Assembly (NCBI GenBank): GCA_947650285.1
Contig: CANTFL010001468.1
Location: forward strand, 124,001-188,000
Direction: 5' to 3'
Length of the DNA stretch: 64,000 bases
Source of the DNA: Hyaloperonospora brassicae
Lineage: Eukaryota; Oomycota; Peronosporomycetes; Peronosporales; Peronosporaceae
Position 1 is the first letter of the stretch. Each line of letters begins with the position of its first letter. The position numbers and the translations under genes are program-made. Shown piece by piece: positions 21,995-56,960 of this stretch. The notes beneath the pieces were generated by a model. The model searched no databases. It was not told the origin of the DNA and saw only the letters and a program-made list of their open reading frames with translations.

Positions 21995-22099
21995 GTAACA
22001 AGCAGCACTATACAAGTAACAAGCATCACCATGCAAGTAATAAGCAACACCATGCAAGTAACAAGCATCACCATGCAAGTAACAAGCAACACTATATAT
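21995..22099. repeat. 21-bp minisatellite, five units, abutting an LTR
   Basis: Five units of the form GTAACAAGCATCACCATGCAA recur with an exact 21-bp period (GTAA at 21,995, 22,016, 22,037, 22,058, 22,079). The period falls next at 22,100, which is the GTAAC of the LTR terminus itself. So the tandem array runs in register into the LTR end. Confidence 0.9.
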
Positions 22100-22490
22100 G
22101 TAACGGGGCACACCCTTGCGTGAACTTAACGCAAGGGTATCGGTGCCCCGACAGACGTACACGAGGCGACGAGGAAGCGTAGGATAAGGAGAAAGCAGAA
22201 CTGTTATATAATTACAATTAAGTCTTTTAACTACTGTCTCTCTGTTTGACTTAACTTTATTATGTCAATATAACTGAGTGTATGGTGACGTCTCGTCACC
22301 ACTCATTGCGCGCGTCCTGTGGCGAGTGGTGGGTTGATATCATCACGATATCAACCAATGAGCAGATCCTTTGGTCGCTTCACCAATATCACCATTATCG
22401 GTGATATTGTTCAAAGAATATTCACTTAATATTCTTTGTTGTCACTTTCTTTTAAAGTGACACTTCCATGTAACGGGCTGCCCCGTTACA
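22099..22490 (-). repeat. 3' LTR of the Gypsy element
   Basis: 392 bp, TGTAACGGGG...CCCCGTTACA. It is almost a string of hairpins: a long two-part stem at 22,104-22,150 (CGGGGCAC/GTGCCCCG outside ACCCTTGCGT/ACGCAAGGGT), GGTTGATATC with its complement (22,332-22,356), CAATATCACC (22,384-22,409), CAAAGAATATT (22,412-22,438), TGTCACTTT (22,440-22,462), and the terminal TGTAACGGG/CCCGTTACA stem. Confidence 0.95.
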
Positions 22491-22504
22491 TCACCCCCCC
22501 TTAA
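22491..22504 (-). other. Polypurine tract
   Basis: On the minus strand AAGGGGGGGTGA lies directly before the first base of the 3' LTR, the expected place for the plus-strand primer of reverse transcription. Confidence 0.8.
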
Positions 22505-22623
22505 CCGATAGTCACCGTGTGACTATCGGAAATTATGGCGGCCACCCGTTGGGCCCCATTAGGACAGGGAGCACTTGTTGGGTCAGTTCCGTTCATGACT
22601 CAACCTGACCTCGCATACTTAAC

Positions 22624-24139
22624 ATGTCTATGAGGGGTGACTCTAGGCACACAGAGTCTGTGCCTGTGCCAGCTTCTGAGGCAGACGATTTGTCGTCTGC
22701 TGCTCGTTCTTGCCTGCAGCAAGAGGTGCTGCAGGTGCACGCGGTACAACACCGCGTGCGCATGATGACCCCGACATTGAGGTCATCTACTCTGGCGAGT
22801 CAGACGTGTCTGACTCGGGCAATGCTGCAGAGGTGTCTCGCTCACCGGCGACGCCTCAGTATTCGCCAAGGCCAATGCCGAACGAACGGACTCGTGAGTT
22901 GCAACACAGTCTGTTCGGCAGTGATGATGAATCTGATGATGAGTATGTTTGCTCATCACCGAAATCAGCTCGTGCTCCTTCGCACGAGCGACCTGACGAT
23001 GGTGCAACCCATCGTAATACTGACAACTGTAATACCAACAAAGGTACCACCGTGAATCGTGATGAGTTGAAGCCGTGGCGTTTGCCCGAACGGCTCATCA
23101 ATGGCTTCTTTAAAGAGACAAGCCAACACCATAAAATACCCTTATTCGATGCGACTCAGCTTCACGGCTTGACTCCCAGCGCGAGCAACTTTCGCGCTGA
23201 AGAAGACTTTTATCTCGATGTCTTCCTTAGACATCGATGGTACAACGGCAACTAAAAGCGTGACAGAAACTCTCTTTTGGCTGCGTGGAACGCGTTCGTC
23301 TAAAACGTCAAGAATTATGGACGAGAAGGGTGGCTCAAGAAACTTGAGGCGACACGCCTCAGATTCGAAAAGCGAACGCCAACCGGTGCCAGGTACCGGT
23401 TGCACTGTTTGTCGAGTGAGGCAGACATTCCTTGCCTCACATGGGGAGACCCTTGTGCGAGTTGTGTTGACTACTCGCAGCGTGCACATAGGAACGTGTA
23501 TTCCCTAAGTTCGCCCTGGGAAGGGCACACATCTCGGAGGAGATGCGTGACGCGATTGCAAACTTGCGATCCGTCTACAAGCGCCAAAAGCGCGTGTTTA
23601 CCGATGGGTCCGAGGACTCATCGGATGGGTCTCGTCATACTAGCGGACGAGACCTTCAACATCCATCAACAGCTAAGAGCAGGGCTCCCAGCTGTTCCAA
23701 GAGGGTGGATACCCCCGCCACTGGACGAGGTAGCTCGTCCTTGATCCTGAATCGTCACGGTGATTCAAGATACGCTTCACTAGGAAGCGTTGATCACCGT
23801 GAGCATCCACCAAAGGATGTGGTGGATGAGGAAAGACCTCCTCTAGATGATTCGGTTCACCATCTCGACCCTTACGAGATGGATCGCGCAATCGATGAAT
23901 TGCGCGATGACTTGAAGCACGAGCGCGATTGGCGCTACGCTTTGACTGATACCGTGCGGAAGAACCACAAGGATCACGAGGCTGATCGGGCGAGGGATCG
24001 CGCCGATTATGCCACGGCGCAGCTTCAGGTCGAGCGGGATGTCCGCTCCCTATTCGGCGAGCTGGCGACAGCTCGCGGGGAGATATCTCGGTTGAGTTCC
24101 GAGGTATCGTATCTGCGCGACCAGACGGATCGTCTGTAG
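22624..24139 (+). pseudogene. Convergent accessory ORF of the Gypsy element, coiled-coil C-terminus
   Basis: Plus-strand coding sequence between pol and the 3' LTR, tail to tail with pol. It opens at ATG 22,624, shifts frame near 22,710, and runs with an acidic/Ser-rich N-terminal part and then ordered sequence (FRAEEDFYLDVFLRHRWYNG). It continues in the same frame through stops at 23,253 and 23,301 (AAWNAFV, NYGREGWLKKLEATRLRFEK, CLTWGDPCASCVDYSQRAHR), then shifts near 23,545 into IANLRSVYKRQKRVF. It ends in a charged heptad-like helix (about 23,890-24,139: DELRDDLKHERDWR ... ISRLSSEVSYLRDQ). The last 0.5 kb overlaps the chromodomain-coding strand of pol. Function unknown; a nucleic-acid or Gag partner role would be a guess. 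The residue patterns look selected, but this copy is broken. Confidence 0.65.
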
Positions 24140-24310
24140 CGAGAACGCAAGAACTTGATAAATGTTCTTGAACGTGGGGGCTATCTTCATCGGAAGAAGA
24201 AGGCTCGTACTGACAGTACGGCCTGAGTTGCCCCACGTAAAACGTAGGATGCGTGCGCATCTTACGTGGCAATTCGAGTGTGTATGCATTGCCCTTGCGA
24301 TGCAACACTC
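23625..24310 (-). pseudogene. Pol C-terminus: spacer and chromodomain
   Basis: Minus-strand end of pol. It begins with the typical post-integrase segment (HPTFYVGQLRPYCQYE), passes through a low-complexity spacer rich in Ser, Pro and Arg, and ends in a chromodomain (GDQRFLVKRILNHR ... YLVQWRGYPPSWNSWEP). Stops fall inside the chromodomain at 23,673-23,675 and 23,640-23,642; the homologous sequence continues after each (DVEGLV, YDETH). Chromodomains of this class direct integration to particular chromatin. The aromatic cage-type residues in YLVQW and WEP are present. Confidence 0.85.
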
Positions 24311-24397
24311 GAAATGGCCCAATATACTTCGGCAGTAGTTTAATACTGCCGACACTAGTGACTGTATATCTAGGTAACTTTACCGTAGACAGTAGTA

Positions 24398-25702
24398 CTA
24401 GGTCATTAACTTTAAATGAAAGAACATTTGCTCTTCCATTCTTGTCTGCGTTCCATTCTGACGGTCCACCGCATTTGCGATGGCGTCCTGAACGAAACGG
24501 ACTACCGATTCTCGAGTCAGCAGGAAGTTCTCTGCTGACTCTTTGTTTTGTCTTTCAGTGCGCTTCGTGCGCACTGCTAAGAGATTGCCCTCTTCTTCAG
24601 AGAGGTTGTCTTCTTCCTCGCTGGAATAATCGTTGACGATGCTGAATATACCAGCATCTTCATCATCATCCAAGTCATTAATAGCGTCGCCGCTATTACT
24701 GATGTGATCTTCTTCATCAATGTCGACTTGATCGACATCGGCATCATACGTGACGAAGTTAGCGTCGACACGTAATGAGCAAGAGCCAAAACGGTTTTTG
24801 CTTGAGCGAGTCCCTCCCCCCTTAATCCAAGAGTCATACTCTAGAAGGGTGTGCACACGTGGATGGCGTAGGCCATTTACGTAAAACGGTGTGTGCTATG
24901 TGGAAGCATGCACCGAATTATTGATGGCGAATTCCACCATGGGTAGGAATTCGCTCGAACTCGGAAACGAGTGGACATATCCTCGAAGGATCTCTTCGAG
25001 GACACGGTTTGCACGTTCCGTCTGACCATCTGTTTCGGGATGGTCAGAAGTGGACATCTTCAATTGTGTTCCAAGAGTACGGAACACGGTTTGCCAAAAT
25101 GCCGCCGTGAACCGAGGGTCACGGTCGGATACGAGTTCACGGGGTAACCCGTGGAGTCTAAAGACCGTGTCTAGAAAGACACGAGCACAACCTTGAGCCT
25201 TGATCGACTCAGGGACAGCAGCAAGATGCACCATCTTGCTGAATCGGTCAACAAACACAAGAATACCATTATTCTTGTGAGCATCTTCGGGAAAACCGAA
25301 GACGAAGTCCATTGAAACGGACTGCCAGCACTCTATCGGAACAGGCAGAGGCTGCAATGGCGCACGGGATGAAGGACTAGGCTTCACCCGTTGACAAACC
25401 TCGCAAGCACATATGTACTTGCGGACAACTTGATACTGGCGTGGCCAGTAAAAGTCACGACTTACCGTGAGTTAAGTCTTTTCTCTACCACGATGGCCAC
25501 CTATTGGGGCATCGTGACACTCATACATGATGAGTAAACGCAAATCATGATGAGCGAGTACGACGACACGAGTCGTGTCGTCGGCAACAGCTGTATAGTA
25601 CAGCAATCCGTTGCGTGTACTATACCGATCCGATGAGGATCGGTACAAAGCCGGTAAATCCCTCATGGATTTACTGGATGGATTCACCAGATGATCCATC
25701 AA
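24398..25702 (-). pseudogene. Integrase region of Gypsy pol
   Basis: Catalyses insertion of the cDNA. An N-terminal zinc-binding part (HHDLRLLIMYECHDAPIGGH at about 25,500, then CACEVCQ near 25,400) leads to the catalytic core at 25,387-24,896: MDFVFGFP (first Asp), SDRDPRF (second Asp), HPETDGQTERANRVLEE (Glu). All three catalytic acids are present. Between core and chromodomain (24,856-24,398) is an Asp/Glu-rich spacer, unusual in its acidity. Stops separate the zinc part, the core and the spacer. Confidence 0.88.
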
Positions 25703-27430
25703 TCGCAGAAGATCCTTATCTTCTGCGTATGCCTTTGTACGTCGTCAAGTAAACTTGACGAAGGGACACTGACTGACAGTGTCGCAACAGTGGGCCTATC
25801 CTCACTGTTGATTTGTGCGTCCGGCTCGAAATCGGGCCGGCGCGAAAGCGCATCAGCGACGATATTGAGTCGTCCTGGTTTATACTCCACGGAGAAGTTA
25901 TACTCCGCGAATAAATACAGCCACCTCGCCATCCTTTGCGAGAGGTGTGGGCTGTTTAAAGCCGTGCGTAGCGACGCATGGTCCGTATAGACAACAAACG
26001 ATCTATCTCCCAAAAAATGGACGCGAAACTTAGCCAGTGCGTACTTCATGGCAAGGATTTTCTTGTCATGCACTGGGTAATTACTCTCATCTGCTTGCAG
26101 CTGACGCGACTGATAACAGATGACGCGCTCCGCGCCATCTGCATCGAACTGCATTAACGAACAGCCGATTGCAAAATCGCTGGCGTCACAGACCACATGA
26201 AATGGTCTGTCCTGATCTGCAATCGCCAAAATAAGCGATCGCATCAAGCTTTTCTTGATGCCTTCAAAGGAAAGCTGACAGTCAGCGTTCCATGACCACT
26301 TGACATTTTTCTTGAGCAAGCAAGAAAGATGAACAGTCATCTCGGCGTACTTGTGCGAGTACTTGTGCAAGTACGCCGCTAGACCAAGGAACTTCCTTAG
26401 TCCCTTGACATCGACTGGCACTGGTCAGTCGGTGATCGCCTTGATCTTTTCGGGATCAGGGCGTACGCCGTGTTTACCCACGATGCACCCAAGAAGTGGT
26501 ATTTCGCTAGCCGCGAATATACATTTCTTGAGTTTGGCGTACAACTTATGCTTGCGCGTAAGTTGAAGGACTTGACGAACGTGGGTTCTGTGAACTTTAA
26601 CGTCCGTCTTTCCGTCCATATCCCGGCTATGGACGAACACATCGTCGAAGTAACTCGGTGCTAAATCGCGCACTGGTATCAACAGATTTGTGACACATCT
26701 GTTGAATGTTGCAGGGGCATTGCTCAGCCCCTGTGGCATAACTAGCTACTCCCACGCATCCCGCTGGGGGTACTCACTGCCGTGAACGGGATGTCCTGTT
26801 CACGCATGAGGATCTGATAAAATCCATCCATCAGATCCATGGACGAAAAGATGGTACTCTTTGACATACCATCTACGATTACGTCCTTCCTCGGTATCGG
26901 TGTCTGAGCCGGTACCGTTGCAGCATTCAATTTGTTGAATGCGTGCACTATCCGACACCCTCCTGTGGCCTTTCGCACACAGAAGGTCGGAGAGCTGTGA
27001 GGGGATGTCGATTTCCTCACATGGCTCGCTGCTAAGCGATCGGCAAAGAACTTGTCGATCGCTAGTACTTGTTCACGAGGCGGTGGCCACTGCTTCATGA
27101 CACAATACTTCGAGCCCGGTCTGAGCTCGATCTCGTGTCGAGTGCCTTTGTCCTTAGGCAACTCGCACGGTACGGATTCAGGGAACACATCCTTGAATTC
27201 GATCAAATCCTTATACAAAGTATTTGCCCTGAAGTGACTCCCAGAATTGGGACGCGTATCGCTCAATCCGAGTCTTCTCATCGAGGACACTTTCGTCCAT
27301 CGATGAGCTGCTGAGAACCCGTTCGTTCTCAGCAAATACTGTGGCCGACCGAATATCGGCCACATACTTATCCTCTGTGACGAGTATGCAGATCTGCTTG
27401 ACTTTGCCACTACGCAGATCACGCAAGAAC
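25699..27430 (-). pseudogene. Reverse transcriptase and RNase H of Gypsy pol
   Basis: RT copies the element RNA into DNA; RNase H removes the RNA strand. The frame carries FKDVFPESVP, the finger-palm segments (CRIVHAFNKLNAATV, IFSSMDLMDGFYQI), LSNAPATFNRC and the YFDD active site (SYFDDVFVHSR). After a shift it continues into RNase H (KFLGLAAYLHKY, VCDASDFAIGCSL, YTDHASL, VADALSRRP). Breaks: a stop near 26,742 with a frameshift inside the segment joining TPSGM to MPQGLSNAP, and another change near 26,423. Catalytic residues are preserved, so the lesions look recent. Confidence 0.92.
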
Positions 27431-28440
27431 CGTTTCGGTTCTAGCGTTGGCAACTGAGTTATCTCCGAAGTTATCTTAGGAGGCACAATCAGATCAAGCG
27501 TATAAGCGCCTACGCTTGATCCGTCATTAACCAAGACGTTCAACGTTTCGGTTACTTCCTGGGAACTTGTTTCCACAGGTTGCTGAAGGCCTAATCCTTC
27601 AGCAAGCTACTCTTGAGAAATTCCTCTCTCAAGTACGTGGGGACTTATTCCCTCGACGTCTTCTGACTGTGGCTGTGCAACCACAGTCAGGGACCGATAC
27701 TCTACGGTCGACTCTCCAGTCGAACTAGGATTTCCATGTTGCCCTTTGGAGGCAACAGGTTTTTTACTTCTAAGATTCTGCCCGCTAGGCATGCATTCAT
27801 GTCCCGGTCCACTCGACTTAATCAAGTGGTGGACCTTCGGCGTAGCCTGTACTTCTGTACAGCCGCCGGGAGCTTGCTCCACAGTGTAGTGATCAACTAC
27901 AATGTGATCTTGTCCAGTCATGCTAACGACCGAACCGCAAGTGAGGCCATCGCACTCACTCGCAGAACATCCACACGCTTGTGGACGCTCCAAGATGTTC
28001 ATCTGATGGCCATCTGATGAACGAGCAGCAGGCATCTTCACGGATCGATGCTGCCAGCTCACCCTTGGCTCGTACTTTCTGAGCCAAGGTAATCCCAGGA
28101 TGACATCAAATTTGTCATCCAGATCCAGTACGATGAAGTCATCATCTTACTGTTCGTCCTCCAACGTGTAGTAGATTCCTACTACACGTTTCTCAACGGT
28201 TATCGATGCGCCTGTTGCAAGGCGCACCGTCATCCTCGTGAGGGGAATGTCGCGCTCAACAAACTTGAGCCTACCACCCTCTAGTGACTGGCGACGAACA
28301 AAGTTGTTCGACGCCCCACAGTCTACTAGGGCACGAAGCGACAAACCATTTGTCGCTTCCAACTTCAAGGTGATGAGCGAAACGTCATCAACAGGTGCAG
28401 AGACACACACTGATTGTGTACCTGGAGCAACTTTCGTCAA
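27211..28440 (-). pseudogene. Aspartic protease and following spacer of Gypsy pol
   Basis: Processes the polyprotein. The domain at 28,440-28,147 contains ALVDCGASNNFVRR, where the usual D-[ST]-G triad is DCG, so the flap-side residue is Cys. This may reduce activity or be a family trait. A stop at 28,147 is followed in the same frame by LDLDDKFDVILGLPWL, a typical late protease strand, so this is a nonsense mutation and not the end of the domain. The frame then continues as a long spacer to 27,211 with another stop at 27,607. Confidence 0.85.
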
Positions 28441-28479
28441 GAGATTTGCAAATTCTCTTGAGATTGCTGGATCAGTAGG

Positions 28480-29660
28480 GCGCTCCGCCCCTACTGACCC
28501 CGACCATTTTTTGATGGTCCGTCTCGCTGTTGCGGCTTCGCAACAGCGCTGGAACCACGCCCATTTCCCTTCTTGGCGAATGGTCGTCCATTTCGCTCAA
28601 TACTGCTTGGTACTGGGCGTGAAGCACTACACTCATGTGCGAAGTGCCCTAACTTCTGACAGCGATTGCACTTCAGCAATCGCTTGTTATTTGAAGAGCG
28701 AGGTCTCTCGCTCTCAACATATCAGAGGTCCATTGGTTCTGGACCTCCCATCTCTTGTCGTCTCGGTGGATGGTAAGAGTTTGAGCTAGCATGAGCCTGT
28801 CTCATGCTAAAGTCTTCCTGTTCCGCGGCTGATATCGCTTCTTCAAGCGTATTCAGCTCAAGGCGGAATGGGTGGCTCCTGACGGGCCCTTCTGCGAGCC
28901 CTTGCATGAACACCAAAATCAACGTGTATTCATGAACTGGGTTAGAAGTTATACTACTCGCTAGGAGTCGTATATGTTGTGCGTAAGCGTGCACATATCG
29001 CTTACCCTGCTTGAGTTTCAGAAGCTCAGAACGATCCCTGAAATCAGCTCGTGGTAGCTCAAACGTTTGTCTGAGCCGGTACTTGAAGTCATCTAGCGAC
29101 CTAAACACATGTGGGTCGCTACTCTCGAGTCCCAGGGACCAAGGTTTTGGCACGACCTGCCAATTGGGTCTGAGCGAATGTGAGTTTCATTTGCTCATCT
29201 TCGACGCGACGAGCCCTTAAAGCTCTGTCGAGCTCGACAAACCATCGTAACAGGGAGTCCTTCGACACTCCACTGTACTTGGAGATGTCAACCTTCATGA
29301 CCTCGGGACGACGCGCATGCGCCTTCCCGCCCACAGCAGCATGGGATTGCTGCTGTCTCAACAGCTCTGTCTGATGAACACCGAGTTCTCTCAACTGCTC
29401 GGCCTGTTGAGAGCCTTGCTGGTGGAGCAAGGATACTTTCTTCCTTTCGGCGACAAGTTTACTTTGGATGAACTTGGCGATAGCGCGGCATGTTGTTGGT
29501 CTCTGTCTAGAGACTCCAACATGGCGCTAATGGCGAACTCGCCTACGGTAGAACTCATTCATTCTACCGCACCCCATTCGATGTCACTCAAATGGGTAAA
29601 CCCTTCACTCGTGGCGTTAAAGGTCCCTTTATCATCCAACATGTTCATGTTGGATGTTGT
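28480..29660 (-). pseudogene. Gag: capsid-like domain and CCHC zinc knuckle
   Basis: Structural protein of the virus-like particle. The N-terminal part (29,430-29,119) is Gln-rich, then VDISKYSGVSKDSLLRWF. A frameshift near 29,130 leads to the capsid core (FRSLDDFKYRLRQTF, LKQGKRYVHAYAQHIRLL). After an in-frame TGA at about 28,722 the same frame holds the RNA-binding knuckle CNRCQKLGHFAHEC (C-x2-C-x4-H-x4-C). So gag has one frameshift and at least one stop. Confidence 0.88.
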
Positions 29661-29672
29661 GGTCCTTGGAAG

Positions 29673-29690
29673 GACTACAAAGTGCTACCA
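29673..29690 (-). other. Primer-binding site of the Gypsy element
   Basis: On the minus strand the sequence two bases after the 5' LTR reads TGGTAGCACTTTGTAGTC. It begins with the TGG expected to pair with the CCA end of a tRNA. The tRNA species cannot be named from this window. Confidence 0.65.
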
Positions 29691-29692
29691 GG

Positions 29693-30085
29693 TGTAACGG
29701 GGCATACCCTTGCGTGAACTTAACGCAAGGGTATCGGTGCCCCGACAGACGTACACGAGGCGACGAGGAAGCGTAGGATAAGGAGAAAGCAGAACTGTTA
29801 TATTAATTACAATTAAGTCTTTTAACTACTGTCTCTCTGTTTGACTTAACTTTATTATGTCAATATAACTGAGTGTATGGTGACGTCTCGTCACCACTCA
29901 TTGCGCGCGTCCTGTGGCGAGTGGTGGGTTGATATCATCACGATATCAACCAATGAGCAGATCCTTTGGTCGCTTCACCAATATCACCATTATCGGTGAT
30001 ATTGTTCGAAGAATATTCACTTAATATTCTTTGTTGTCACTTTCTTTTAAAGTGACACTTCCATGTAACGGGCTGCCCCGTTACA
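29693..30085 (-). repeat. 5' LTR of the Gypsy element
   Basis: 393 bp. It differs from the 3' LTR by one inserted base in the ATATTAATTAC region, one C/T change near the start and one A/G change in a hairpin stem (near 30,008). It drives transcription on the minus strand. It carries the same series of hairpins. Confidence 0.95.
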
Positions 30086-30806
30086 GTTTAAGTAAAAGCA
30101 TAGAACTAAATCTTTCATTCATTTAATCACGCCCGGGGAATCACCCTTTCGGCACGCCAGTCAATAGTGGCCGTTCTTATTCGTGTTTCCATTAGTTCGC
30201 AACGAAACACTCGAGAAGCACGGAATACTACGTAGTAGCAGCTCTTTCGATGGCGATACATTGAAGCTGCTGCCCGACTACCTGTTCCAGGTGTTAATAA
30301 TCAATCGTAGCAGCATTAAAGTAGTATTGTAGACGAATTGGGTGTACACGGCTCGAGTACATCGTGTCTCTGCTTACAACACGTTTGGAAGTGGTGTACG
30401 CGACGCCGCGTTTAGTCAGCCAAACAGACGCTGCATAACATCAGCATGGGCTTTTTGTAGCACAGTTCGCCGAAAGATTCTACTCCGGCGCCTCAATTTT
30501 TTTGTTGTGTCAGACCCGTGCTGAGCTAGCGGTGCGCGCGTCCCTCGATGCTTGTGATCGAAAAATTACACCGTTATGTTCGATTTGGTCATGTGAATAT
30601 GCGTGAATCCAAGCTGACGTTTTTTTGTTTCCAGTAAATCCACAGCTACAAATAGTGCTAGTTGTATACATTAGTGACATTGATAGTTGGGATTAAGTAC
30701 TTGGAAAAGCGAGACCCGCCATGGGCTAGAAGCGAGGTCGTGGATTTTATGACATCAAATGCATGGCGTTCTATGTGTTCTCAGCGGTATCATCGGGATT
30801 GATTTT

Positions 30807-54382: not shown

Positions 54383-56960
54383 ATGACCACAGCCACGACA
54401 GCCACGGCCAAGTCGTCTCTAGCGGTCCACAAACAGAGCTTCCGCGAGTACCTGGTACTGCCTGAACGCGCCGCTTCCAGTCCACGCATACAGTGTACAC
54501 ACACAACCCTTGATTCTCACTCATTGCGACGGTCAACTGATGTTCTGTAGCGCGAGACGGATGCAGTGCAAGACGAGACAGAGCTCGACAAGCTGATGCA
54601 GCTGCTGCACGAACCTCTGCCCGTCTCGTTCCGTCTCAATTTGCACCGTCCAGACGCTGCGAGGTTCGTGTTTGTCGCCGCGCCGTAAGACGCTTCGGAA
54701 TCCACTTGTAACTTCACTGTGCACGTGTCGCAGGCTGAAGACACTGCTGGCTACGGAGCATCAATTTCCGAGTCAGAAGAACTTTTACGGTACAATTTCT
54801 GTGAACCCGCCAAAGTGAGTGTGTGCTTGTTGCAAGGTATTGGACGACTGTGTCGTTGCTTCTCGATGATTTATATATAATCTGTGCAGGCCGATTGCAT
54901 GGTATCCGCTGAAGAATGTGGCGTGGCAAATGGATTGTGGGCGTGTTGCGCTGTCGAAAAGTGGTACGTGTTATTCATGGCTTTCGAGATGAGGTCAAGG
55001 AAGCTCTTCTGGTCATTTTGTGGGAATTGTTGACCAGCGCCGAAGCACGCGGACGTGCGTGCATTCCACACGTGTTTGTTGGAGCATACGGATCGTGGAA
55101 ACATCGACCGCCAGGAGGCAGTGAGTATGCTGCCAGTGCTTTTCCTGGACGTGCAATGCGGTCACCGGGTGCTTGACATGTGCGCGTCTCCTGGCTCGAA
55201 GACGACGCAGGTCATTGACTGTTTGTTGTCGTCAGAAGATAGCAACGGTAAGAAACAGAGCGGCCTTGTCGTTGCTAATGACCTTGACAAGAAACGGGCG
55301 TATATGCTTGTGCACCGCCTTTCGAGGAACACGCTTCGTCGTGCTGTGGTGACCTGCGGTCCAGGTGACACGTTCCCAGGTCTGTACGACGCTGAAACAG
55401 AGACTTTGGAGTCGACAAATGTGTTCGACCGTGTGCTGTGTGACGTTCCTTGCAGTGGTGACGGAACACTGCGCAAAAACCAGTCGATATGGAAGGACTG
55501 GCATATTGGCCAAGGTCTCACGTTACATCCGGTTCAGCTAGCGTTGGCTCTTCGCGGGGCAGCTCTGCTGAAGGTAAACGGCACCATGGTCTACTCAACG
55601 TGTTCCTTCAATCCCGTGGAAAACGAGGCTGTTGTGGCGGAACTGCTACGCCGTGCCGGAGGATCGCTTGAGCTGCTGGACGTTTCGAAAAAGATGCCTG
55701 CGCTTGTCACCCGTCCAGGTCGGTCGAAATGGCGTGTAGGCTGGCGCTCAAAGTCGAAGTCTACCAACAAAGGCTACCTGTTTAAGGGTGCGGAGAATGA
55801 CAATGATAACGTAGGTTCAGGGCTCCATGATTGGTTTGACGAATACGACAAGGTGGTAGAAAGCCTTCGTGGTAAGCGGATAACACGATCAATGTTTCCG
55901 CCGGAACATTGTGTTGCCAAGGAGCTGCGCAAGACACTTCGTCTCATCCCAACCGATCAGAACTCTGGTGGGTTTTTCATCGCTGTGCTGCGCAAATTGC
56001 GCGACTTGCCTGGTGTAGAGGGACGTCAGGAAGGCTTTGCCGCACTAGAAGAATCGGAAGCGTTGCCACCTGCTGACTATATCTGCAAGTTGTGTGGCAC
56101 GGGGGGCCATTTCTTAAGAAGCTGCCAGAATTTCTTATCGGACACAGAATTCGCTGCTTCGAACGCATCACTGAAGCCACGGAAGAATCGCGGAGAGGCG
56201 TCGACTGATGCAACAATTGGTGCAACGAAACAGTTCGATAAGAAGCGTGAGACGGTCTACCGTGCTGTTGGGGATGATGTGTGGCAGCAATTGCAAGAGT
56301 TTTATGGCATTGAGGATAAAACGCTAAAGGTGAGTGTACAATGAGCTTATGGGGGTGCTCTGGTATGTGTTTACATGTTTGCGTGTGATTCAGGAGCACT
56401 TATGGTGTCGCTCTGACACTGCGGTGACCGTGAATTACGTGGACAAGGAAATCGCTGATGCCTGCTTAAGTGGTGACGCACTTGATGTGAGTGATCTTCT
56501 TGCTCACGTTGCGGTCAAGGTTCTGACACAATGAGTGCTATGTGCGCAGATCATCAATACGGGCTTGAAGGTGTTCACTAAGACGACAGAACGAGGCGAG
56601 GTGTTTTACCGCCCCTCGGAGGAAAGTCTCGGCTTCCTCGACGGCTTTTTCACCAAGCGTCGCTTTGACATATCGATTGCCGACTTCTCCAATCTCCTCG
56701 GGAACGCAGATAATCACGTAGCCTTCGACTCGCTGTCGTCAGGTCTGCGCAAGTCACTCGGCGATATGCCAATGGGCCCTGCAGTTGTCCGAGTTCAGGA
56801 AAATGAACAACTCTGCATGAACATATGGGTCGGTAAGGGATCAATTTTGCCTCGCGTGTCCAAGGCCATGCGCGAAGAGGTCAAAGACGCGCTGACGCAG
56901 TACACGGAAAATGGTAAACACGCCTTTGCTGATCCCGATGCTGACCTCACTTCGCGCTAA
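54383..56960 (+). CDS. tRNA (cytosine-5) methyltransferase, NSUN2/Trm4 type, seven exons
   Basis: Methylates cytosine C5 in tRNA using S-adenosylmethionine; family members act in the nucleus. My model joins 54383-54454, 54551-54663, 54734-54814, 54890-54963, 55038-56329, 56394-56486 and 56550-56960. All introns are GT-AG, 63-96 bp. The sum is 2,136 nt, 711 aa plus stop, in frame, close to yeast Trm4 (684) and human NSUN2 (767). Landmarks: LHEPLPVSFRL (exon 2), PIAWYPLKNVAWQ (exon 4), NIDRQEAVSMLP, SAM site VLDMCASPGSKTT (158-170), release cysteine in DVPCSGDGT (Cys252), nucleophile in YSTCSFNP (Cys302), C-terminal IINTGLKVF. A CCHC zinc knuckle (C463, C466, H471, C476) lies in the C-terminal half. 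The first exon is the least certain; the ATG at 54,383 is the first in frame after a non-ATG stretch. The gene looks intact. Confidence 0.9.

What the first reader, a model, noticed from the sequence alone, without database searches (positions are those of the whole stretch)
22099..30085. A Gypsy element saturated with short perfect hairpins, including its coding sequence
Perfect inverted repeats of 7-12 bp with small loops recur every few tens of bases through the LTRs and the coding regions of gag, protease, RNase H, integrase and the antisense ORF. Examples (stem length): 22505-22529 (10), 22737-22759 (9), 22797-22816 (9), 23628-23654 (9), 23883-23908 (10), 24514-24541 (10), 24980-25002 (9), 25021-25048 (10), 25219-25241 (10), 25256-25279 (10), 25561-25583 (11, one-base centre), 25704-25727 (10), 26241-26261 (8), 28163-28190 (12), 29633-29656 (11). 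I did not notice the same density in the Copia element or the methyltransferase gene of similar composition. Possible causes: a mutational process that perfects quasi-palindromes by template switching during reverse transcription, selection for structured RNA, or a role in packaging, translation or small-RNA production. I know of no description of this property, but could not search.
Basis: seen in the sequence. Interest (0 to 1): 0.8.

Follow-up and report, generated by a model that had tools for sequence, protein, structure and literature searches.

The report
Retrotransposon built from tiny perfect hairpins
A recently active jumping element in a downy mildew (an oomycete that infects cabbage-family plants) has perfect short inverted repeats packed along its whole length, genes included, and its evolution suggests that the base pairing is being kept by selection, for a reason not yet known.

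Summary
All 15 of 15 listed hairpins are at the stated coordinates. The 8-kb element has 72 perfect hairpins (stem >=8, loop 0-12) against a mean of 1.5 (maximum 5) in 100 dinucleotide shuffles; eight other 8-kb pieces of the window have 0-3. The host is almost certainly Hyaloperonospora brassicae. The element is a chromodomain Gypsy family; 10 of 10 (nearly) full-length copies and 30 of 30 pol pieces read are hairpin-rich. A sister family with 54% identical RT has none. Synonymous shuffles do not explain it (pol 53 against 1.0). Two subfamilies differ at 6% of stem sites, 18% of loop sites and 14% of outside sites, with 13 compensated pairs against 1.2 expected. So pairing is maintained as the family spreads, but private mutations ignore it. 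Wobble mismatches are not consistently better tolerated than others, which argues against ordinary genomic-RNA structure; template switching explains maintenance poorly. The function is unproven. My best guess is interference with the host's two-stranded 25-26-nt small-RNA silencing; DNA- or cDNA-level pairing is a close rival.

The parts
22099..30085 (-). Full-length LTR retrotransposon (Ty3/Gypsy, chromodomain-bearing), reading on the minus strand, saturated with perfect short inverted repeats (72 with stem >=8, loop 0-12)
29693..30085 (-). 5' LTR; hairpins present
   Evidence: the two LTRs differ at 2 of 391 positions
22099..22490 (-). 3' LTR; hairpin density in the LTRs of intact copy L049 is 17.6/kb
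28491..29526 (-). gag, broken into several frames in this copy; intact 396-aa ORF in L049 matches Retrotrans_gag, Ty3_capsid and, below Pfam's cut-off, zinc knuckles
28147..28596 (-). Aspartic protease stretch (RVP_2 in the intact ORF of L049)
26425..27440 (-). Reverse transcriptase region, broken frames in this copy
25699..26424 (-). RNase H
   Evidence: RT_RNaseH 1.3e-30
24896..25744 (-). Integrase region, in two frames in this copy
23673..24554 (-). C-terminal pol ORF; SH3_Tf2-1 and Chromo are detected in the corresponding ORF of intact copy L049 (the window ORF itself was not scanned)
22680..24139 (+). Antisense ORF (broken here into several frames; intact 426 aa in L049), antiparallel to and partly overlapping the chromodomain ORF; itself hairpin-rich (17 against 0.27 expected in L049)
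22505..22529 (.). Example hairpin, stem 11, loop 3
25561..25583 (.). Example hairpin, stem 11, one-base centre
28163..28190 (.). Example hairpin, stem 12, loop 4
25704..25727 (.). Example hairpin, stem 10, loop 4, in coding sequence; perfect in 6 of 37 pol copies, the commonest state having one mismatch

Best explanation
This is a recently active, high-copy chromodomain Gypsy family of Hyaloperonospora brassicae in which a third (stem >=8) to nearly half (stem >=6) of the sequence of intact copies is organised as short perfect inverted repeats (stems mostly 6-10 bp, loops mostly 3-10, whole span mostly 20-29 nt), in the LTRs, gag, pol and the antisense gene alike. SHOWN: far above chance and above protein-preserving shuffles; absent from the other families sampled in this genome; placed where synonymous freedom allows, without cost to conserved residues; low stem divergence and compensatory pairs between spreading lineages, but private mutations blind to stems. 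INFERRED: selection at the level of the element keeps the pairing, and it shows no consistent strand preference. INFERRED, weakly (about 0.3): the selective agent is the host's small-RNA silencing, which in a related oomycete uses 25-26-nt RNAs from both strands of repeats. A segment of that length that folds on itself would yield guides of either strand that fold instead of pairing, and hidden target sites. A role in the element's single-stranded cDNA or DNA is the closest alternative (about 0.25).
For: Excess. Copies. Other families. Coding compatibility: pol hairpins avoid the frame register with 3rd-3rd and 1st-2nd pairing (25:6:24, p=0.002; antisense ORF 12:1:6, p=0.008); departures from conserved residues are 5 of 108 in stems, 17 of 321 outside. 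Maintenance: subfamily B against main, stem 109/1704, loop 97/538, outside 599/4260, stem against outside p=4e-18; third codon positions stem 20/217, loop 20/67, outside 113/599, p=0.0008; third-position variants shared by >=3 of 37 copies: stem 29/253, loop 23/74, outside 124/610, while private ones are equal (0.44, 0.50, 0.46 per site; p=0.011). Compensation: 13 of 825 pairs against a re-dealt mean of 1.24, maximum 7 in 2000; 37 both-sided Watson-Crick states against 16 both-sided others among 1041 pairs of the full-length alignment (2 and 4 poorly aligned ones left out). Span: 104 of 112 hairpins are 20-29 nt; the excess fades beyond loops of about 17. Of 25-nt windows, 36% fold at <=-4 kcal/mol on both strands, against 14% in three shuffles and 9-16% in six other retroelement loci. 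25-26-nt small RNAs from both strands and from repeats in Phytophthora parasitica: PMC5411455, passages.
Against: If RNA pairing of either strand were selected, transition mismatches (wobble on one strand) should be tolerated better than transversions; they are not (31:28 in stems, 344:255 outside). This counts against the small-RNA reading too. About two thirds of 25-nt windows remain unlocked. The stem-loop length correlation that suggested a fixed span is largely an effect of chance inward pairing. One-sided breaks (59) outnumber compensated pairs (13), so hairpins also decay in spreading lineages. At first and second codon positions shared variants are not depleted in stems (p=0.74 and 0.41; all positions together p=0.054), and second positions diverge alike between subfamilies (5/200 and 15/610). 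In the 40-copy pol alignment alone both-sided Watson-Crick states number 19 against 13 others, with 5-14 in slid controls. Hairpins sit in slightly less conserved protein columns (0.69 against 0.74). Some copies with near-identical LTRs have broken genes and fewer hairpins, so no single hairpin is essential in cis. I have no small-RNA data for this element.
Confidence: 0.6

Rival explanations
1. Mutational origin: the reverse transcriptase switches template within the nascent strand and copies one arm onto the other, perfecting quasi-palindromes; the array is a by-product filtered by the proteins' needs.
For: Pairing shows no consistent strand or wobble preference; private mutations ignore stems, so whatever keeps them acts in spreading lineages; frame registers fit protein filtering. 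More differences from the P. effusa protein in sense 5' arms (0.161 of 112 codons) than 3' arms (0.074 of 121) would fit directional copying, but this is weak and was not tested further.
Against: Unbiased copying keeps divergence at the neutral rate with changes compensated (inference); stems diverge at less than half the outside rate, with 59 one-sided changes against 13 compensated. Of 37 compensated states 31 are transitions: more than copying of single mutations predicts (p=0.0006 at the outside transition fraction of 0.57) and in line with two separate mutations (p=0.29). One hairpin shows stepwise change. Of 16 hairpins seen in one copy of 37, 13 differ from the commonest state by 1-3 bases; the others by 4, 11 and 25, the last two in gapped stretches. 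A sister family with 54% identical RT has none.
Confidence: 0.15
2. Genomic-RNA structure (packaging signals for Gag, compaction, translation control, or GORS-like persistence): selection on the sense transcript's fold.
For: Sense MFE is -132.7 per 300 nt against -88.8 in five shuffles and -79 to -83 in four other Gypsy loci; compensatory evolution. Stem variants shared by exactly two copies are 27 GU against 12 AC, more GU than the mutation spectrum predicts (p=0.003).
Against: Other classes do not show it: one-mismatch stems 14 GU and 17 AC in L049, 5 and 11 in the window copy, 14 and 14, 13 and 14 in L011 and L010; variants shared by >=3 copies 9 and 19; private 71 and 75; subfamily differences 11 and 20; all variants in >=2 copies 36 and 31 (p=0.14). 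The antisense strand folds equally well. Loops share no evident motif.
Confidence: 0.2
3. DNA-level pairing: hairpins in single-stranded minus-strand cDNA, or inverted repeats in double-stranded DNA, matter for reverse transcription, cDNA stability or integration.
For: Transitions and transversions equally depleted in stems; LTRs as dense as genes.
Against: No such role in retroelements is known to me (recalled); no shared loop motif seen; copies with degraded hairpins were still inserted recently.
Confidence: 0.25
4. Artefact of composition, of codon usage or of the reader's eye.
For: None found.
Against: Dinucleotide, synonymous and codon-order shuffles and sister families.
Confidence: 0.01

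Closest known systems
Ty3/Gypsy chromoviruses (LTR retrotransposons with a chromodomain); nearest protein listed: Peronospora effusa, 88% over RT-RH-IN
   Same: LTRs, Ty3-type capsid, protease-RT-RNase H-integrase order, SH3_Tf2-1 plus chromodomain
   Different: Hairpin-saturated sequence; an antisense gene opposite the chromodomain end
Genome-scale ordered RNA structure (GORS) of some RNA viruses (recalled)
   Same: Pervasive folding through coding regions, kept through synonymous sites
   Different: Here separate, perfect short hairpins; both strands equal; no consistent G-U tolerance; in a retrotransposon
Dispersed packaging-signal stem-loops of ssRNA viruses (recalled)
   Same: Many small stem-loops along the genome
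   Different: No common loop motif seen; also in LTRs and the antisense gene
Quasi-palindrome template-switch mutations (recalled)
   Same: Product would be perfect short inverted repeats
   Different: Stem conservation and single-pair compensation rather than conversion

Membership tests
Ty3/Gypsy chromovirus | Two LTRs flanking gag-pol | tested here: met
Ty3/Gypsy chromovirus | Domain order PR-RT-RH-IN | tested here: met
   (L049, 1339-aa ORF)
Ty3/Gypsy chromovirus | Chromodomain C-terminal to integrase | tested here: met
   Chromo 1.3e-13 in the separate C-terminal ORF of L049; how it is joined to pol was not tested
Ty3/Gypsy chromovirus | Placement in the RT tree of known clades | not tested
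   Only a homologue search by identity
Genome-scale ordered RNA structure | Folding energy below shuffles along the genome | tested here: met
   (mean over 300-nt pieces of L049, five shuffles)
Genome-scale ordered RNA structure | Signature of RNA-level selection (G-U tolerated on the selected strand) | tested here: not met
   one of the classes (variants in exactly two copies, 27:12) points the other way
Genome-scale ordered RNA structure | Structure present in the RNA in cells | not testable with these tools
   needs chemical probing
Template-switch quasi-palindromes | Arm-to-arm templated multi-base changes | tested here: inconclusive
   mostly changes of 1-3 bases; sample small
Template-switch quasi-palindromes | Stem divergence at the neutral rate with changes compensated | tested here: not met

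The most novel reading that the evidence does not exclude
A retrotransposon has recoded its entire genome, inside and outside its genes, into self-complementary segments of small-RNA length, so that silencing RNAs made from either strand fold on themselves and their target sites are hidden: a silencing defence written into the sequence itself and kept by selection.
Probability: 0.25. Interest if true: 0.95.

Novelty: new variant of a known kind. Interest (0 to 1): 0.8.

Why it matters
If confirmed, a mobile element can carry a second layer of information (in intact copy L049 a palindrome every 51 bp at the median, 72 on average) on top of its protein code, and selection keeps it. That would be an unusual constraint on coding sequence. 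The family offers a natural experiment on how retroelements escape small-RNA silencing or use nucleic-acid structure: a hairpin-free sister family and many decayed copies sit in the same genome.

Tried and rejected
Chance, composition, codon usage: rejected by three kinds of shuffle and by sister families. Stem cap at 10 bp as avoidance of longer stems: looked sharp in one count, but over ten copies the numbers mostly fit chance extension of stems of up to about 10 bp; dropped. Regulated total span: partly an effect of definition; kept only as a weak pointer. Excess in L051 and in Copia loci L061-L064: the first lies next to a copy of this family, the second comes largely from a tandem TGACGTCA array (3 of 5 hairpins in L061-L063, 2 of 3 in L064). 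Supposed diverged relative L068: same family. Compensation among the 37 pol copies alone was modest (33 of 513 pairs against 13-18 in slid controls); it became clear with subfamily B. L022 (aligned poorly) was left out and the later alignments (52, 53, 64). DNA of relatives outside this genome: none found in IMG/VR or GTDB contigs. Rfam: no match at gathering threshold. Papers: nine searches for such an element or its parts and one on oomycete small RNAs; only listings were seen, some capped (12 of 29, 12 of 172, 10 of 16), and none of the listed titles or abstract starts describes this property; subscription papers are mostly not in that library. One paper was opened, PMC5411455 (passages).
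Full report
WHAT WAS CHECKED. The window copy (22099-30085) was scanned for perfect inverted repeats. With stem >=8 and loop 0-12 the element holds 72; 100 dinucleotide shuffles give a mean of 1.48 and a maximum of 5; eight other 8-kb pieces of the window, partly overlapping, give 0-3. In 2-kb bins the four element bins hold 68 against about 0.8; the other 28 bins hold 15 against about 9.5.

THE HOST AND THE FAMILY. The window's methyltransferase frame is identical over 99% of its length to a Hyaloperonospora brassicae protein (P0121), so the 100.6-Mb genome behind the window is that species or one extremely close. The element is a Ty3/Gypsy chromovirus reading on the minus strand. An intact copy (L049) has gag (396 aa, Ty3_capsid; zinc knuckles below cut-off), pol (1339 aa: protease, RT, RNase H, integrase), a C-terminal ORF with SH3_Tf2-1 and chromodomain, and an antisense ORF of 426 aa. 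Among the 120 homologues listed of 3232, pol is nearest to Peronospora effusa (88%), then unnamed metagenome proteins, Phytophthora and Globisporangium. The family is large: first-look candidates number 2004 for the LTR and 3630 for RNase H (the latter may include other Gypsy families, and only 40 and 150 were scored).

THE COPIES READ HAVE IT; OTHER FAMILIES SAMPLED DO NOT. Nine full-length copies (window copy, L009-L015, L049) and one nearly full-length (L068, cut inside one LTR) were read: 68-99 hairpins (stem >=8) in the first eight, 107 in L049 with flanks, 90 in L068. All 30 of 30 pol-region loci read, of 150 scored matches, have 5.4-13.0 per kb. Of 10 loci taken from 150 matches to a Gypsy protease model, nine have 0-2 and the tenth (L051) lies next to a copy of this family. 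Of 8 Copia loci taken from 151 matches, four have 0-1 and four have 3-5, largely from one tandem array. Two other Gypsy RT loci found by a motif pattern, L074 (54-55% identical to this pol) and L075 (33% over most of its match), have no stem of 7 or more, where this family has 13-18 stems of 8 or more per 1.2 kb of pol.

ANATOMY. In L049: stems of 8, 9 and 10 bp about equally common and few longer; over ten copies the longer ones mostly fit chance extension. Loops mostly 3-10; of 112 hairpins with stem >=8, 104 have a span (2 x stem + loop) of 20-29 nt, mode 23-24. The excess of inverted repeats (stem >=8) is 106 against about 1.3 for loops 0-14 and fades after about 17, with a small remainder at loops 21-60 (19 against about 4.3). 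Coverage: 34% of L049 for stem >=8, 46% of the L027 pol stretch for stem >=6. Density: LTR 17.6/kb, antisense ORF alone 19.8/kb, pol 13.7/kb, gag 12.6/kb, the stretch shared by antisense and chromodomain ORFs 9.6/kb; flanking DNA 0. Loops share no evident motif.

COMPATIBILITY WITH THE PROTEINS. Shuffles that keep the protein and the codon counts give 1.00 hairpin in pol (maximum 5 of 100) against 53. The arms of pol hairpins lie in three possible frame registers; the one in which third positions face third positions, and which offers least synonymous freedom, is rare (25:6:24, p=0.002). The antisense ORF, in its own frame, shows the same (12:1:6, p=0.008), which also supports its being a real gene; gag and the chromodomain ORF do not (6:4:5 and 4:4:5). 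Against the 120 listed homologues, the element departs from conserved residues in 5 of 108 stem codons and 17 of 321 outside codons; hairpins sit in slightly less conserved columns (0.69 against 0.74). So the pattern lies within the limits set by the proteins.

EVIDENCE THAT PAIRING IS KEPT. Among 37 pol copies, variants private to one copy are as common in stems as elsewhere at third codon positions (0.44, 0.50 and 0.46 per site for stem, loop, outside), but variants shared by three or more copies are not: 29 of 253 stem sites, 23 of 74 loop sites, 124 of 610 outside sites (shared against private, stem against the rest, p=0.011). At first and second positions there is no such difference (p=0.74 and 0.41), and over all positions p=0.054. 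A tree of 40 copies shows a separate subfamily B (L017, L071-L073). Comparing young B copy L017 and its flanks with intact main-family copies: stems differ at 109 of 1704 sites, loops at 97 of 538, outside at 599 of 4260 (stem against outside p about 4e-18; stems defined on one main copy only, stretches below 70% local identity left out). At third positions of pol: 20 of 217, 20 of 67, 113 of 599 (p=0.0008); at second positions stem and outside are alike (5 of 200, 15 of 610). Of 825 pairs, 19 changed on both sides, 13 of these to another Watson-Crick pair; re-dealing partners gives 1.24 on average and 7 at most in 2000 trials. Across the full-length alignment, 37 distinct both-sided Watson-Crick states against 16 both-sided others; in the 40-copy pol alignment 19 against 13, with 5-14 in slid controls. 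Of the 37, 31 are transitions, in line with two separate point mutations (p=0.29) and more than copying of single mutations predicts (p=0.0006). One hairpin shows steps: four copies have one pair replaced, L014 and L017 four.

WHICH MOLECULE. If the genomic RNA's fold were selected, G-U should be tolerated better than A-C on the sense strand. Mostly it is not: one-mismatch stems in L049 14 GU and 17 AC; variants shared by >=3 copies 9 and 19; private 71 and 75; subfamily differences 11 and 20. The class of variants in exactly two copies goes the other way, 27 and 12 (p=0.003); all variants in two or more copies together are 36 and 31 (p=0.14). The mutation spectrum outside stems predicts about 45:55 (my arithmetic). 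Nor are transitions favoured over transversions among one-sided changes (31:28 in stems, 344:255 outside), which would be expected if RNA hairpins of both strands were selected. What is kept looks like exact complementarity regardless of strand. That favours a DNA or cDNA reading and weighs against any RNA reading, mine included.

MECHANISM. Unbiased copying of one arm onto the other by the reverse transcriptase would make compensated changes but leave stem divergence at the neutral rate (inference); the observed rate is less than half, so removal of broken pairs, that is selection, is the better account of maintenance. The agent is unknown. I commit, at about 0.3, to small-RNA silencing: in Phytophthora parasitica the main small RNAs are 25-26 nt, are associated with repeats, come from both strands, and go with silencing (PMC5411455, passages). 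The hairpin span has that scale, and 36% of 25-nt windows of the element fold at -4 kcal/mol or below on both strands against 14% in three shuffles and 9-16% in six other retroelement loci. Against it: most windows are not locked, wobble is not consistently tolerated, and I know of no demonstration that such self-folding guides fail in oomycetes.

LIMITS. No DNA of the family from another species was reachable, so age and conservation beyond this genome are unknown. Subfamily B rests mainly on one young copy. Pairs in one stem are not independent, so p-values are approximate. Private variants need not all be later than insertion: several copies have LTRs more alike than their interiors suggest.

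Noticed in passing
window 22680-24139 (+); intact in L049:1629-2906: Antisense ORF of 426 aa, antiparallel to and partly overlapping the chromodomain end of pol. 81 database proteins match; those with a named organism are from Peronospora matthiolae and Hyaloperonospora, two of them carrying effector-candidate names there. Only weak Pfam matches, below cut-off, to coiled-coil-type families.
   Followed up: partly
window 22099-30085: The two LTRs differ at only 2 of 391 positions, yet gag and pol are broken and the interior differs by 4% from an intact copy: a recent copy of an already decayed element (moved in trans), or LTR conversion. Conversely L049 has intact genes but LTRs 3% apart.
   Followed up: partly
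L049:2906-3516 (-), window about 24398-24895: A strongly acidic stretch lies between integrase and the SH3/chromodomain part, where the reading frame changes between the long pol ORF and the C-terminal ORF; possibly a frameshift site.
   Followed up: no
L061-L064: A Copia family carries a tandem array of TGACGTCA palindromes.
   Followed up: no
window 22094-22098 and 30086-30090: No matching target-site duplication flanks the element, by eye.
   Followed up: no
window 29680-29692 (-): The sequence just inside the 5' LTR (sense TGGTAGCACTT) resembles an initiator-tRNA primer site (recalled, not tested).
   Followed up: no
window 55034-56344 (+): The host gene is an RsmB/NOP-type RNA methyltransferase with a zinc knuckle; no hairpin excess.
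   Followed up: no
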